Under the pieces are notes generated by a model. That model did no database searches. It was not told the DNA's origin and saw only the letters and a list, made by a program, of their open reading frames with translations. Made by a program: the position numbers and the translations under genes. Positions 2 to 16,510 of a DNA stretch of 17,819 nucleotides are shown piece by piece (position 1 is the stretch's first letter; each line of letters opens with the position of its first letter). The stretch is from an uncultured delta proteobacterium. GTDB taxonomy: Bacteria > RBG-13-61-14 > DRUE01. The stretch lies in NCBI GenBank assembly GCA_903930515.1, contig CAIYYW010000314.1:1-17819 (forward strand), read 5' to 3'.

Positions 2-634
2 ATCGTCCTGATCGTGCTCCTGATCCGGTGGCTGGCGATCGAGCCGTTCCGGATCCCGAGCGGGTCAATGATCCCGACCCTTTTGGTCGGAGACCAGTTG
101 ATGGTGAACAAGTTCACCTACGGATGGCAGATCCCCTTCACCACCAAAAAGCTGACCAATTTCAAACAGCCCGAGCGCGGAGAGATCATTGTGTTCAAGT
201 TCCCCAATAATCCGCGCGAGGATTATGTCAAGAGGGTGGTCGGTCTTTCCGGAGATGAATTGATGATGCGCGACGGCGTTCTGTTCATCAACAACAAGGA
301 AGTCCCGCGTCAGTATGTCAGCCCCTACACCGGCCCGACCGACGGCGGCTTTTGCGACCAATACGACCTTTATATGGAACAGCTGGACCGTCACGAGCAC
401 CAGATGATCCTGTGCCACCGAGCCCATCTCGGGAATGATTACGGACCGGTCCAGGTCCCCGAAGGGTTCCTGTTCGGGATGGGGGACAACCGCGACAACT
501 CCTCCGACAGCCGCGACTGGGGGTTCATCCCCAAACAGAACATCAAGGGCCGAGCCCTGTTCATCCATCTCCCCTTGAATCCACAAAACCACTACCTGCC
601 GAGATGGAACCGGTTCTTCAAGATGATCAGGTGA
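2..634 (+). CDS. lepB: Signal peptidase I, 5'-truncated by window edge
   Basis: Membrane-bound serine/lysine protease that removes signal peptides from exported proteins on the outer face of the cytoplasmic membrane. The frame is open to the window edge and begins inside the transmembrane helix. A GTG at 14 is only an internal codon: the paralogue at 706 has about 95 residues before this point, so the true start lies upstream. All family boxes are present. Counting from the codon at 14, the nucleophile is Ser18 in IPSGSMIPTL, the general base is Lys73 in YVKRVVGL, and the C-terminal box is GDNRDNSSDSRDWGFIP. The periplasmic domain has a Cys pair matching one in the paralogue. The last 91 bases are almost identical to the end of the next gene although the rest has diverged. 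The family is certain and the enzyme is likely active; the N-terminus is unseen. Confidence 0.93.
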   Translation: MVLIVLLIRWLAIEPFRIPSGSMIPTLLVGDQLMVNKFTYGWQIPFTTKKLTNFKQPERGEIIVFKFPNNPREDYVKRVVGLSGDELMMRDGVLFINNKEVPRQYVSPYTGPTDGGFCDQYDLYMEQLDRHEHQMILCHRAHLGNDYGPVQVPEGFLFGMGDNRDNSSDSRDWGFIPKQNIKGRALFIHLPLNPQNHYLPRWNRFFKMIR

Positions 635-9437: not shown

Positions 9438-10145
9438 ATGGGATACTCAAAAGATGAAACAATCAAAGCCGCCAAGAATTTGCTGCCAGCCTCGTGGTAC
9501 AAAAAACCTTGTGTAGGCTGGAGAGGGAAAACTTCTGATACCAGAAAGAGATATTCAGATATTATTGCTGAAGAGATATGGGAAAATATCTCAGCATTCG
9601 AAACTATTAAGCCACTGGAGAGGCGCAAATCTTATAAAGTGAATCATGATAAGAATAAGAAACAAACCGGCACCAATCGTGCTGAGGAAAATTTTGCTAA
9701 AAAAATCGTTAGCAAAAAGATCGATATTTTAGGGTATATTTTTGACTTTCAAGTACCATTAAAGGACAAAGAAGATGACAAGGCCGGGAAAATTGATTTA
9801 GTCTCTTTCAATAAAAATACTGGAAGATGTTATCTAGTAGAATTGAAAACAAAAAATAATAAAGAATCGCTTTTAAGGCCTGTTCTAGAAATAGCCACCT
9901 ATTATAGACAGCTGCACCTTGCCAAGTTTATTGCTGATTTTTCAAATGAGCTTCCCGGGTTGACCGAGAAGGATATATATAAAGCCGTCCTGCTTGAAGA
10001 AGGATCCAAATCAGAGGAAATTTATAGCATACTTGGTAGCGAGTCTCCACTGCGAAAATTGATAAACGCACTTGGTGTTGATATTTTGATATTTAGAGAA
10101 GTGAAGGACTCCGTCATTATCATAAGTCAGGAGTCAATCCGCTAG
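9438..10145 (+). CDS. Putative PD-(D/E)XK-fold nuclease
   Basis: A 235-aa protein not recognisable as a named family. It carries the hallmark of the PD-(D/E)XK nuclease fold: Glu83/Glu84 in an N-terminal helix, Asp120 in GKIDLVSF, then Glu135 and Lys137 in CYLVELKTK, followed by a helix ending in YYRQLHLAKF. The first 75 residues are basic and may bind nucleic acid. GGGGGTG (9424-9430) precedes the ATG. It is strongly AT-rich compared with its surroundings: the 60 bases from 9841 contain 18 G/C, against 35 in the 60 bases from 6961. This suggests horizontal acquisition. It is coupled to the beta-CASP gene. Nuclease activity is inferred from motifs; it could also be a nucleic-acid-binding relative. 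The 136 bases downstream of its stop hold no gene I can support. Confidence 0.65.
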   Translation: MGYSKDETIKAAKNLLPASWYKKPCVGWRGKTSDTRKRYSDIIAEEIWENISAFETIKPLERRKSYKVNHDKNKKQTGTNRAEENFAKKIVSKKIDILGYIFDFQVPLKDKEDDKAGKIDLVSFNKNTGRCYLVELKTKNNKESLLRPVLEIATYYRQLHLAKFIADFSNELPGLTEKDIYKAVLLEEGSKSEEIYSILGSESPLRKLINALGVDILIFREVKDSVIIISQESIR

Positions 10146-10281: not shown

Positions 10282-10740
10282 ATGTTTAAAATCGCCAGGG
10301 GTCTGTTTAATCTTTTGCTTTTAAAATCAATGCGTTCCAGGAGTTTGGACTGGCTTTACCGACAATTTAACCGGCCCTGGGACTATGGGTATCGGGACAA
10401 GGTCAGCCTTGGGCAGGCGGTTATTTTATTGAATGAACTGGTCAAGGCCGGCCCGGAAACGATGAAGGCTTTGCTGGAGGCCCGGGTGCCGTGCGCGGAG
10501 AATCTGGCCAGGCATCCGAGCGTGCAGGTGCTGATGAAGGACGGCCGGCCCATGGTGGGTTTGCTGGGCGTGCTGAACGGGCTGTTTGGCAAGGGCGCCG
10601 ATGGGCAGGCGCAGATTATAGCGGAAAGCGACGGAACCAACTGCCAGCTGTGCCATTTTTGGACCCGCGAGGACTGGAAATTTCAGATCGACCTGGCCAA
10701 GGCCCTTCGGGAAATGGAAGAAAAATCTCCGGAAAAATAA
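10282..10740 (+). CDS. Hypothetical protein, unrecognised
   Basis: A 152-aa protein I do not recognise. It begins with a hydrophobic amphipathic stretch (GLFNLLLL) and a basic segment, then a helical middle (GQAVILLNELVKAGPETMKALLEA), a GLLGVLNGLFGKG segment, a Cys-x-x-Cys pair (CQLC, about 131-134) and a charged C-terminus. It has no clear signal peptide or catalytic motif. Translation is well supported by GGAGGTG (10268-10274) seven bases before the ATG, and by a return to GC-rich codon use after the AT-rich nuclease gene. The next promoter (10744) starts right after its stop, so it is transcribed separately from the DnaE-like gene or by read-through. Confidence 0.7.
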   Translation: MFKIARGLFNLLLLKSMRSRSLDWLYRQFNRPWDYGYRDKVSLGQAVILLNELVKAGPETMKALLEARVPCAENLARHPSVQVLMKDGRPMVGLLGVLNGLFGKGADGQAQIIAESDGTNCQLCHFWTREDWKFQIDLAKALREMEEKSPEK

Positions 10741-10776: not shown

Positions 10777-10806
10777 CAGACTCTAAAATTTCAAGGAGAA
10801 GCCAAA

Positions 10807-12117
10807 ATGAGAACCGCTCAATTCAACTATCTGCCCGACCCGTATCCGAACGAACCGGGCACGCCGGATGATCGGCTTAAGAGCAAGGCCATGGCGGGAT
10901 TGAAAGAACGGCTGGCCTTTTTCAAACAGCCGGGGCCGTTGTTCGCCTCAGAGGCAAAGGAATACAAGAAGCGGCTCAATTTTGAACTCAAGGCCATCAA
11001 GGAAGCTGGCTTTGCCAACTATTTGCTGATTGCCGCTGATTTCGTTGATTATGCGCGCAAGCACGGCATCTTGATCGGACCCGGCTGCAATTCCGCTCCG
11101 GGCTGCCTGGTCAATTATGCTTTGGGTATAACCAAAATTGACCCTATCGCGTACGGACTGATTTTTGAGCGATTTTTTACAGTCGGTCAGGACCGATTAC
11201 CCGCTATTGATTTTGACTGCTGCGTGGAACGGCGTCGGGAAATTCATCGGTATTTAATGGCGAAATACGGCGCTCCCCATTTCAAGCAATTTATCCGCGG
11301 CTCCAACGGCTACGCTTTCGGAATCGTCTTATCAAATCATCCCATCGCGGAAATTTATCCGCTTTACTCGGCTCAGGGCACGGACGAAGTTTGCAACGCC
11401 ATAGCCGATGAGGAGGGGGCTAGGAAAATAGGCATGGCGCTTTATGTTTTACTTGGTCTGCGCCACCTGGATGGGATTGGCCAATGCCTCAAGCTGGTCA
11501 AGGAAAGCGGACGCGGCGAAATAGTCATTGATTCGATCCCGCTTGACGACCGGAAAACCTGGGAGCTTTTAGCCGCCGCCGACACCTACGGCGTGTTCAT
11601 GTCCGCAGCCCAGGGCATGCGCGACTTGCTCAAACAGATCCAGCCGCAAACGATCGAGCAGCTTGCGGCGGTTTATACCCTTTACTGGCCAGACCCGATA
11701 GAAAAGGGTATCCCCGAGACATATATCCGCAGGAAAGGCGGCCAGGAAGCCATTCCTGCTATTCATCCGGTTTTCGATGAAATCACCCAGGAGACCTTTG
11801 GCCTGATTCTTTTTCAGGAACAGGTGATGATGATCGTCCACGCCATGGCGGGAATCCCCTTGGATGAGGCACACGGCTTTTTCAAAAGAATCCTCCAGAA
11901 CGATCCGGAAGCTGAAGCCCTATTTCTGTACGGCTGCTCCCGGAAGCGCATGGGCAACGAGCCGTCTGGCAAAGTCTTTTCGGAACTCGACCGGCTTGAC
12001 CGCCATGCCTCTATTAAGGCGGATGACCTATGCTATGCATTGCTGACTTACCAGACCGCCTGGCTCAAGGCCAACTTTCCCGGCGAATTTGCCCGCGCCT
12101 TTCCCGCCACGGCCTAA
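10807..12117 (+). CDS. Truncated, catalytically degenerate DNA polymerase III alpha (DnaE-like) homologue
   Basis: A 436-aa protein clearly homologous to the DnaE polymerase core, against about 1,160 aa for the E. coli protein. It lacks the PHP domain, the beta-binding and OB domains, and about 100 residues around the thumb (junction near 157-172). Matching segments run in order: RLNFELKAIKEAGF, GPG..S.PG.LVNYALGITKIDP (91-113), FERFF, LPAIDFDCCVERR (131-143), LLGLRHL (215-221), GMRDLLKQIQP, FGLILFQEQVMMIVHAMAG and YQTAWLKANFPGEF. Against E. coli recalled from memory, catalytic Asp401 is Ala133, Asp555 is Val214, GPGRGS is GPGCNS, FQLESRGM is FMSAAQGM, RPGPL is WPDPI and LRRAMGKK is FKRILQND. 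The frame is intact with good translation signals, so it is probably expressed, but polymerase activity is very unlikely. A structural, DNA-binding or regulatory role is possible, as is a decaying relic. Confidence 0.82.
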   Translation: MRTAQFNYLPDPYPNEPGTPDDRLKSKAMAGLKERLAFFKQPGPLFASEAKEYKKRLNFELKAIKEAGFANYLLIAADFVDYARKHGILIGPGCNSAPGCLVNYALGITKIDPIAYGLIFERFFTVGQDRLPAIDFDCCVERRREIHRYLMAKYGAPHFKQFIRGSNGYAFGIVLSNHPIAEIYPLYSAQGTDEVCNAIADEEGARKIGMALYVLLGLRHLDGIGQCLKLVKESGRGEIVIDSIPLDDRKTWELLAAADTYGVFMSAAQGMRDLLKQIQPQTIEQLAAVYTLYWPDPIEKGIPETYIRRKGGQEAIPAIHPVFDEITQETFGLILFQEQVMMIVHAMAGIPLDEAHGFFKRILQNDPEAEALFLYGCSRKRMGNEPSGKVFSELDRLDRHASIKADDLCYALLTYQTAWLKANFPGEFARAFPATA

Positions 12118-12237: not shown

Positions 12238-13167
12238 TTGGGCGGGATTGGCATCATCCATAACCCTTTTGCGCGCGGAAACCTTCGCCGGCCCGGGATC
12301 ATTGAGCAGTTGAAAAGCATCGTGGGCGATTCCGGGGAGGTGATTCTTACCCGCAACATCTCCGAGCTTCCGGAGGTGATGAAAGAATTCTCCAAAAAAG
12401 GATATGACCTCCTGGCCGTGAACGGCGGAGACGGCAGTATGCACCTGGTCCTGAGCGCGTATCTCAACGCCCTTCCCGGACAGCCGCTTCCCAAAGTGGC
12501 CTCCCTCCGGGGCGGCACCATGAACACCATGCCCAACTCGGTCAAGCTCAAGGGAAACACCCTTTACATCGCCCGGAAGCTGGTGACCAAATACCGCTCC
12601 GGCGCGCCGATGGAGGTGTTCAAACAGCACCTGGTCCGGCTCAATGACAAATACGGCTTTATGACCGGAATCGGGGTTCCTCCCAATTTCCTGGCCGCGT
12701 ATTACAGCGGAACCTCCACCGGCCCCTGGCAGGCAGTCAAGGTGATCGCGCGCGTGATCGGCTCCGCCCTGACCAGAGGCCCTTATGTCAAACACCTCTT
12801 TGAGCCGGCCAAATGCATCGTCAAGGTCAAGGGCCAGGAGATTGCTCCCCGGGAATTCTCCGGCATACTCGCCTGTTCCATCAAGGAAATCGGACTGGGG
12901 TTCACTTTCACCCCTCACGCCTATGACCAGCCCGGCCATTTCCAGTTACTCGCCACCACGATGAGTCCCTTCCAGATCATCCCCAATATTCATAAGTTCT
13001 GGCTGGGACAGGACATCATTCATCCCCAGGTTTTTTCCTTTGTCACCGACCAGGCCCTGATCACCCCCCTGGCGAATATGCGCTATACGATTGACGGAGA
13101 GATTTACGAAACCGAGGAGCCGATTGAGATGAGCTGCGGACCGACTATTGACTTGGTGAAAATATAA
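12238..13167 (+). CDS. Diacylglycerol/sphingosine-kinase-like protein, paralogue 1
   Basis: A 309-aa protein of the DAGK-catalytic / NAD-kinase-like superfamily, likely a lipid or related small-molecule kinase in the cytosol or at the membrane surface. Its motifs are GIIHNPFARGN (4-14), the phosphate-binding VNGGDGSMHLVLSA (61-74) and SLRGGTMNTMPNS (89-101), which stands where canonical members have a PxGTxND-type loop. The TTG start at 12238 is supported by AAGGAGG (12225-12231) at good spacing and by gap-free alignment with the ATG start of the paralogue at 15578. It is followed after 22 bases by methylthioadenosine phosphorylase, so the two are probably co-transcribed. The substrate is unknown; the altered second motif suggests a divergent subgroup. 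Confidence 0.78.
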   Translation: MGGIGIIHNPFARGNLRRPGIIEQLKSIVGDSGEVILTRNISELPEVMKEFSKKGYDLLAVNGGDGSMHLVLSAYLNALPGQPLPKVASLRGGTMNTMPNSVKLKGNTLYIARKLVTKYRSGAPMEVFKQHLVRLNDKYGFMTGIGVPPNFLAAYYSGTSTGPWQAVKVIARVIGSALTRGPYVKHLFEPAKCIVKVKGQEIAPREFSGILACSIKEIGLGFTFTPHAYDQPGHFQLLATTMSPFQIIPNIHKFWLGQDIIHPQVFSFVTDQALITPLANMRYTIDGEIYETEEPIEMSCGPTIDLVKI

Positions 13168-15540: not shown

Positions 15541-15577
15541 AAGGAGTAGCGGAATTCCGGCTGAGAAGGAGAAGTTG

Positions 15578-16510
15578 ATGGGCGGAATAGGAGTAATCCA
15601 TAACCCCTTTGCCAAAGGGAATCTAAAACGGCCGTGGATCGTGCAGAAACTGCAGGAGTTGGTGACCGACATCGGCGAGCTGTGGGAGACACGCAACATC
15701 GCCGAGCTGCCGAAAGTGGCGGAGGATTTTCTCAGGCATAAATTAGAAATCCTGGCCATAAACGGCGGAGACGGGACCCTGCACCTGGTGCTTTCCGCTT
15801 TCATCAAGGTCTATGGCGACCAGCCCCTGCCCAAGGTGATCTCACTCCGGGGCGGGACTATGAACACGATGACCAACTCGCTCAAGATCAAGGGCCGCAC
15901 CCTTTCCATCCTGAAGCAGGCGGTGGAGAAATACCGGCAGGCGGAACCGATGCGGGAGTTGAAACAGAACCTGCTCAAGATCAACGACAATTACGGCTTT
16001 ATGGGCGGCGGCGGTATGGTTGCCAATTTCCTGGATGAATATTACTCGGTCCCGCACCCGACCCCGTGGCATGCCCTCAAGCTCGTCGCCCGGGCCACCG
16101 CCTCCGGGCTCGCCGGCACCGAATACGCCCGCAAGCTGTTCCGGGCCACGCCGATGCGGGTGACTGTTGACGGAAGGAAACTAGATCCCGAGGAGTTCAC
16201 CGGGTTCCTCGGATGCACCATTGAGGAGGTCGGGCTCCACTTCCGGCCAACCTTCCGAGCCAATGACCAGCCGAACCATTTCCATTTCATCGCCACCACC
16301 ATCAAGCCGATCTGGATGGCCCCGCGCATCCCGGTGTTCTGGTTTAACCGCGACTGGGTGCATCCCAAGGTCCAACATTCCGGAGTGACCAAAGGAGTGC
16401 TGGTAGAGCCGATCAAGCCCTTCCGCTGGACCATGGACGGAGAGATGTACACCGCGGACCTGCCCCTGCATCTCTCAGTCGGGCCGACCGTCTCCGTGCT
16501 GGCGCCCTAA
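15578..16510 (+). CDS. Diacylglycerol/sphingosine-kinase-like protein, paralogue 2
   Basis: A 310-aa paralogue of the 12238 gene, aligning without gaps over at least the first 100 residues (MGGIG.IHNPFA.GNL.RP). It has INGGDGTLHLVLSA (61-74) and SLRGGTMNTMTNS (89-101), so the nucleotide loop and the unusual GGTMNT motif are both kept. The ATG at 15578 is chosen over the in-frame TTG at 15575 because AAGGAG (15566-15571) gives 6-base spacing and the paralogue starts at the same residue. It is a single-gene unit with its own promoter and is convergent with the phosphodiesterase gene 62 bases downstream. Two copies within 3.4 kb, each with a different dyad-bearing promoter, suggest separately regulated isoforms. 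The reaction is inferred only at superfamily level. Confidence 0.78.
   Translation: MGGIGVIHNPFAKGNLKRPWIVQKLQELVTDIGELWETRNIAELPKVAEDFLRHKLEILAINGGDGTLHLVLSAFIKVYGDQPLPKVISLRGGTMNTMTNSLKIKGRTLSILKQAVEKYRQAEPMRELKQNLLKINDNYGFMGGGGMVANFLDEYYSVPHPTPWHALKLVARATASGLAGTEYARKLFRATPMRVTVDGRKLDPEEFTGFLGCTIEEVGLHFRPTFRANDQPNHFHFIATTIKPIWMAPRIPVFWFNRDWVHPKVQHSGVTKGVLVEPIKPFRWTMDGEMYTADLPLHLSVGPTVSVLAP

What the first reader, a model, noticed from the sequence alone, without database searches (positions are those of the whole stretch)
10807..12117. Intact but catalytically degenerate mini-DnaE
Seen: a 436-codon open frame keeps the order of DnaE polymerase-core segments but lacks the PHP domain, the C-terminal domains and about 100 residues around the thumb. 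Asp401 maps to Ala133, Asp555 to Val214, the GPGRGS loop is GPGCNS, RPGPL is WPDPI and LRRAMGKK is FKRILQND. Established: those Asp residues are required for Pol III alpha catalysis (E. coli sequence recalled, not aligned by software). Inference: nearly every active-site motif changed while scaffold segments such as LILFQEQVMMIVHAMAG and YQTAWLKANFPGEF stayed and no stops arose. That fits a repurposed, non-catalytic polymerase homologue better than random decay.
Basis: partly seen in the sequence, partly recalled or inferred. Interest (0 to 1): 0.8.

Follow-up and report, generated by a model that had tools for sequence, protein, structure and literature searches.

The report
Lone catalytically dead DnaE core protein
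This bacterium carries, besides two normal replicative-type polymerases, an intact gene for a cut-down copy of the polymerase core in which the catalytic residues are gone but the fold appears kept; no other genome searched has it, so it may be a polymerase turned into a non-enzyme, but its job is unknown.

Summary
The frame at 10807-12117 (436 aa, good ribosome-binding site, no stops) is a DnaE homologue made only of palm and fingers: no PHP domain, no C-terminal domains, and the thumb (E. coli ~433-504) removed in frame. Against 29 DnaE proteins it loses 23 of 65 near-invariant residues, including two of three catalytic aspartates (D401->A133, D555->V214), K553, R362/G363 of the GPGRGS loop and the steric gate H760; D403, D405, S364 and the QEQ motif stay. 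Catalysis is very unlikely. The predicted fold is intact (pLDDT 86.7; TM 0.85-0.89 to Pol III alpha). Unconstrained decay to the same loss would give 6-8 stop codons, and losses fall more on polar than on structural conserved sites, so a simple relic is disfavoured. The genome has its own intact DnaE1 and DnaE2. No orthologue was found in two related genomes or ~780 others, so dN/dS could not be computed and conservation of the inactive state is unproven. I judge it a probable maintained pseudo-polymerase derived from a DnaE1 paralogue, function unknown; a young relic remains possible. I found no report of an inactive C-family group in the two surveys consulted.

The parts
10807..12117 (+). 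mini-DnaE: palm and fingers of a C-family polymerase, catalytic residues lost, 436 aa
   Evidence: Pfam/NCBIfam/PDB sequence matches; alignment to 29 DnaE; AlphaFold2 pLDDT 86.7, Foldseek TMq 0.85-0.89 to Pol III alpha
10793..10798 (+). Shine-Dalgarno-like AAGGAG, 8 bases before the ATG
   Evidence: sequence read directly
11077..11094 (+). altered nucleotide-binding loop GPGCNS (residues 91-96; GPGRGS in DnaE)
   Evidence: alignment, R94C and G95N in the mini
11197..11226 (+). altered first catalytic motif LPAIDFDCCV (PDxDxD in DnaE; D401->A133, D403 and D405 kept)
   Evidence: alignment
11287..11304 (+). junction where the ~72-74-residue thumb is missing, in frame (around residues 161-166)
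   Evidence: phmmer blocks end/start at E. coli 432/505; 74-residue deletion against the same-genus DnaE1
11437..11463 (+). altered third catalytic motif ALYVLLGLR (KFDFLGLR in E. coli; K553->L212, D555->V214)
   Evidence: alignment
11998..12027 (+). altered O-helix motif (GYGFNKSH in DnaE; Y754->H400, F756->S402, H760->D406)
   Evidence: alignment; role of H760 from PMC8485763
10282..10740 (+). 152-aa upstream ORF, same strand, phage-type orphan; possibly one transcription unit with the mini, link not shown
   Evidence: phrog_21281 E=4.5e-7; kin in two large phages and in G336

Best explanation
A translated, folded, catalytically dead paralogue of DnaE1: a pseudo-polymerase reduced to palm plus fingers. 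Shown: ORF intact, homology, loss of catalytic and dNTP-binding residues, loss of the thumb and of all known partner domains, intact DnaE1 and DnaE2 elsewhere in the genome. Inferred: that it is made, that selection keeps its fold, and that its present role is binding (most likely to a protein partner; less likely to DNA or a nucleotide), for instance as a competitor or scaffold in replication or repair, by analogy with inactive polymerase homologues such as ImuB. The exact role is a guess (below 0.2 for any single one).
For: Two of three catalytic Asp, K553, R362, G363 and the steric gate H760 are lost; 23 of 65 near-invariant columns changed, while 26 of the 29 other DnaE keep 95-100% of them (two DnaE2 and one viral DnaE keep 79-85%). 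Neutral drift to 35% loss at those columns gives 6-8 stops, P(no stop) below 0.003; all seven indels are in frame, including a clean thumb excision. Losses are commoner at polar than non-polar conserved columns: Fisher p=0.009 at the 95% cut-off, 0.003 at 90%, 0.026 at 85%. AlphaFold2 pLDDT 86.7, pTM 0.88; Foldseek TMq 0.85-0.89 and VIA-align Z 34-46 to DnaE structures. Codon usage fits the genome (z 6.7) and the ORF starts behind a good RBS at the PHP/palm boundary. In 107 genomes it is the only open frame under 780 aa with a near-whole finger domain. Finger half net charge -10 against a mean of 0 in DnaE, consistent with loss of DNA/dNTP binding.
Against: No orthologue in the same-genus or same-order genome or elsewhere, so no direct sign of conservation and no dN/dS. 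The polar/non-polar bias is not significant at 100% conserved columns (p=0.16). AlphaFold2 was given true DnaE rows and may return the family fold for a decaying sequence too. No expression data. Neighbouring genes give no functional clue.
Confidence: 0.55

Rival explanations
1. Young relic: a diverged dnaE paralogue, perhaps already fast-evolving or brought in by a mobile element, lost its PHP, thumb and C-terminal parts and is now drifting without function, by luck still open.
For: No orthologues; very long end branch 3.12; upstream ORF 10282 is phage-type and 9438-10145 is low-GC, so the stretch may be a degraded element; genus-level duplication not rejected, AU p=0.073.
Against: Neutral loss of 35% of conserved residues predicts 6-8 stops, and even a 20% neutral share predicts 3-4 stops, P(no stop) 0.01-0.03; in-frame, domain-exact deletions and a proper RBS; bias of losses to polar sites.
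Confidence: 0.3
2. Still a nucleotidyltransferase: the retained D135-x-D137 pair shifts register and serves a changed, minimal polymerase-beta-type activity.
For: D403 and D405 are kept as an hDhD motif in the right strand; the palm aligns weakly to polymerase-beta-type nucleotidyltransferases (Z about 5).
Against: Third Asp, K553, R362, G363, steric gate and thumb lost; no acidic residue replaces D555 in MALYVLLGL; Z about 5 is in the range of common arrangements.
Confidence: 0.07
3. Element-encoded interference protein: a dead polymerase core that, with the phage-type neighbour ORF 10282, blocks replication of the host or of rival elements.
For: The neighbour ORF 66 bases upstream is phage-type; both are absent from the two related genomes.
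Against: The phages that carry kin of 10282 have no match to the mini; the mini groups, weakly, with its own phylum's DnaE1; no PADLOC match.
Confidence: 0.08

Closest known systems
DnaE1, alpha subunit of DNA polymerase III (C-family)
   Same: Palm and fingers homologous along the whole length, about 34-43% identity in the first palm part and 29-35% in the rest; predicted fold superposes
   Different: No PHP, thumb, HhH/clamp-binding, OB or CTD parts; two catalytic Asp and the steric gate lost
DnaE2 (error-prone C-family polymerase)
   Same: An additional, presumably non-essential DnaE in the genome; the host's own DnaE2-like protein is G000:C292
   Different: DnaE2 keeps the catalytic residues and full architecture; the mini is less similar to it (24-33% identity)
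ImuB and other inactive Y-family homologues; PolX with an inactivated polymerase site
   Same: Polymerase homologues without catalytic residues, kept as accessory or non-polymerase proteins (PMC12926913)
   Different: Other polymerase families; those have conserved orthologues and partners, the mini has none known

Membership tests
C-family DNA polymerase (DnaE), homology | Significant match to DNA_pol3_alpha and finger profiles over palm and fingers | tested here: met
   Pfam E=1.5e-38 and 5.2e-36, above the curated cut-offs
C-family DNA polymerase (DnaE), as active enzyme | Catalytic Asp triad D401, D403, D555 | tested here: not met
   A133, D135, V214; the triad is called absolutely conserved in PMC3919608
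C-family DNA polymerase (DnaE), as active enzyme | Steric gate His (H760) and GPGRGS loop | tested here: not met
   D406; GPGCNS; H760 role from PMC8485763
DnaE1/DnaE3/DnaE2 architecture | PHP domain, thumb, HhH/clamp-binding and OB domains | tested here: not met
   Protein covers only E. coli 278-432 and 505-785; no credible PHP piece upstream
DnaE1/DnaE3/DnaE2 (NCBIfam models) | Score above the curated cut-off | tested here: not met
   Best 332 bits against cut-off 1002
Maintained pseudo-polymerase | Orthologues share the inactive state under purifying selection | tested here: inconclusive
   No orthologue found; only three genomes of the phylum are held
Pseudogene/relic | Stops or frameshifts at the level expected for the divergence | tested here: not met
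   0 stops against 6-8 expected under full neutrality; a shorter neutral phase is not excluded

The most novel reading that the evidence does not exclude
The first maintained non-catalytic member of the C-family polymerases: a DnaE palm-finger core turned into a binding or regulatory protein, as ImuB is for the Y family.
Probability: 0.35. Interest if true: 0.65.

Novelty: new variant of a known kind. Interest (0 to 1): 0.45.

Why it matters
Inactive homologues are known for other polymerase families and act as partners in repair. The C family, which holds the bacterial replicases, is described as having an absolutely conserved catalytic site, though the 2013 survey removed fragments without an intact site before analysis. 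A maintained dead member would show that this fold too can be reused, and that such proteins may have been filtered out of surveys.

Tried and rejected
Orthologue searches: genome contigs and viral contigs by protein, an alignment-based viral scan, phages and plasmids by tblastn, 60 relatives with the whole protein, the three held genomes of the phylum, 386 relatives and 395 genomes of another phylum with the thumb-junction peptide: only ordinary or interrupted DnaE. A PHP remnant at the end of ORF 10282 (10-residue match to a PHP motif, lowest E=0.002 in a 1.4-kb target) was rejected, because that stretch lies in the part of the ORF that aligns to its kin in G336. Flanking repeats or a tRNA that would mark an element: none convincing. 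Promoter/terminator scan at chance level. Phages with kin of ORF 10282 carry no match to the mini. AU test of a genus-level duplication gave p=0.073; the test of grouping with DnaE2 was not finished.

Full report
What is there. The frame 10807-12117 on the + strand is open for 436 codons, begins with ATG behind AAGGAG and has codon usage close to its neighbours (codon score z 6.7; GC by codon position 0.59/0.40/0.63). Shuffled versions of the stretch give longest stop-free runs of 107 codons on average and at most 257. It matches DNA_pol3_alpha (1.5e-38) and DNA_pol3_finger (5.2e-36) in Pfam, stays far under the NCBIfam cut-offs for DnaE (332 of 1002 bits) and aligns to E. coli Pol III alpha in two blocks, 278-432 and 505-785. 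So PHP, thumb and everything after the fingers are missing. The thumb deletion is about 72-74 residues.

Catalytic site. I aligned it with 29 DnaE proteins from its own genome, its phylum, other phyla and one virus. Of 65 columns conserved at 95% or more, 42 are kept and 23 lost: among them R94C and G95N (E. coli R362, G363), D133A (D401), K212L (K553), D214V (D555), R294W, R359F, K364Q, K365N, Y400H (Y754) and H406D (H760). E. coli numbers are read off the alignment. D135 (D403), D137 (D405), S96 (S364), Q337 and E338 are kept. PMC3919608 says D401, D403 and D555 are absolutely conserved in the C family (its authors removed fragments without an intact site); PMC8485763 says H760 is the steric gate and invariant. 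Polymerase activity is therefore very unlikely. The surveys PMC3919608 and PMC12926913 describe inactive members of other polymerase families; I found no inactive C-family group in the passages read. I did not read them in full, nor their supplements.

Relic or protein? There is no orthologue from which to compute dN/dS. I used three indirect tests. First, starting from the genome's own DnaE1 and drifting without selection until 35% of these conserved residues are lost gives 6-8 stop codons, with P(no stop) below 0.003; at 20% loss it is 3-4 stops and 0.01-0.03. Frameshifts were not simulated and would add to this. Second, all seven indels against the same-genus DnaE1 are in frame, and losses fall more on polar than on non-polar conserved columns (p=0.009 at the 95% cut-off, 0.003 at 90%, 0.026 at 85%, but 0.16 at 100%). 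Third, AlphaFold2 with 13 rows gives pLDDT 86.7 and pTM 0.88, matching Pol III alpha structures at TMq 0.85-0.89 and Z 34-46; this is weaker evidence, because the rows are true DnaE. Together they disfavour a simple relic but do not prove selection.

Origin. The genome (G000, 93.5% complete) has a DnaE1 (C89, cut by the contig start) and a DnaE2-like protein (C292), both with intact motifs. The tree puts the mini beside the phylum's DnaE1 with unstarred support 87/66 and an end branch of 3.12 against 0.13-0.32; a duplication inside the genus is not rejected (AU p=0.073). The same-genus genome (87% complete) and the same-order genome lack it. In 107 genomes no other short frame has a near-whole finger domain, and the thumb-junction peptide finds no other copy in 386 plus 395 genomes. 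The DAGK-like gene followed by a nucleoside-phosphorylase-like gene (named by eye), which lie after the mini, are also neighbours in G002:C44, where the upstream side differs, so the mini lies in a variable stretch. Its upstream neighbour ORF 10282-10740 is a phage-type orphan, but those phages have no match to the mini.

Working. That is inference. I put 0.55 on a translated, fold-keeping, non-catalytic paralogue, 0.3 on a young relic, and small weights on a residual nucleotidyltransferase or an element-borne interference protein.

Noticed in passing
window 9438-10145 (+): 235-aa ORF of 37% GC in a ~56% GC neighbourhood with atypical codon usage; by eye a D-x(n)-E-x-K pattern (VELKTK) as in PD-(D/E)XK nucleases; only weak profile matches (PADLOC PDC-S11 0.005, PriA 3'BD 0.017).
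   Followed up: partly
window 10282-10740 (+): Phage-type orphan (phrog_21281, 4.5e-7) with kin in Virus Rctr197k, Tunturiibacter phage Tunturi_5 and genome G336, where by eye it lies beside a DNA-methyltransferase-like ORF.
   Followed up: partly
window 12238-13167 and 15575-16510: Two DAGK-domain paralogues, 49% identical; the first is followed by a nucleoside-phosphorylase-like gene, as in G002:C44.
   Followed up: partly
window 14-634 and 706-1611: Two tandem signal-peptidase-I-like genes (by sequence reading only).
   Followed up: no
L059, L063, L064, L074 (viral contigs): Phage dnaE genes whose frame breaks off or is interrupted at or near the GPGRGS/PDxDxD catalytic region, some with intein-like inserts (by eye).
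   Followed up: no
G081:C10:161595-161711: 95-aa frame with a 39-position piece of the finger domain, perhaps a true dnaE relic.
   Followed up: no
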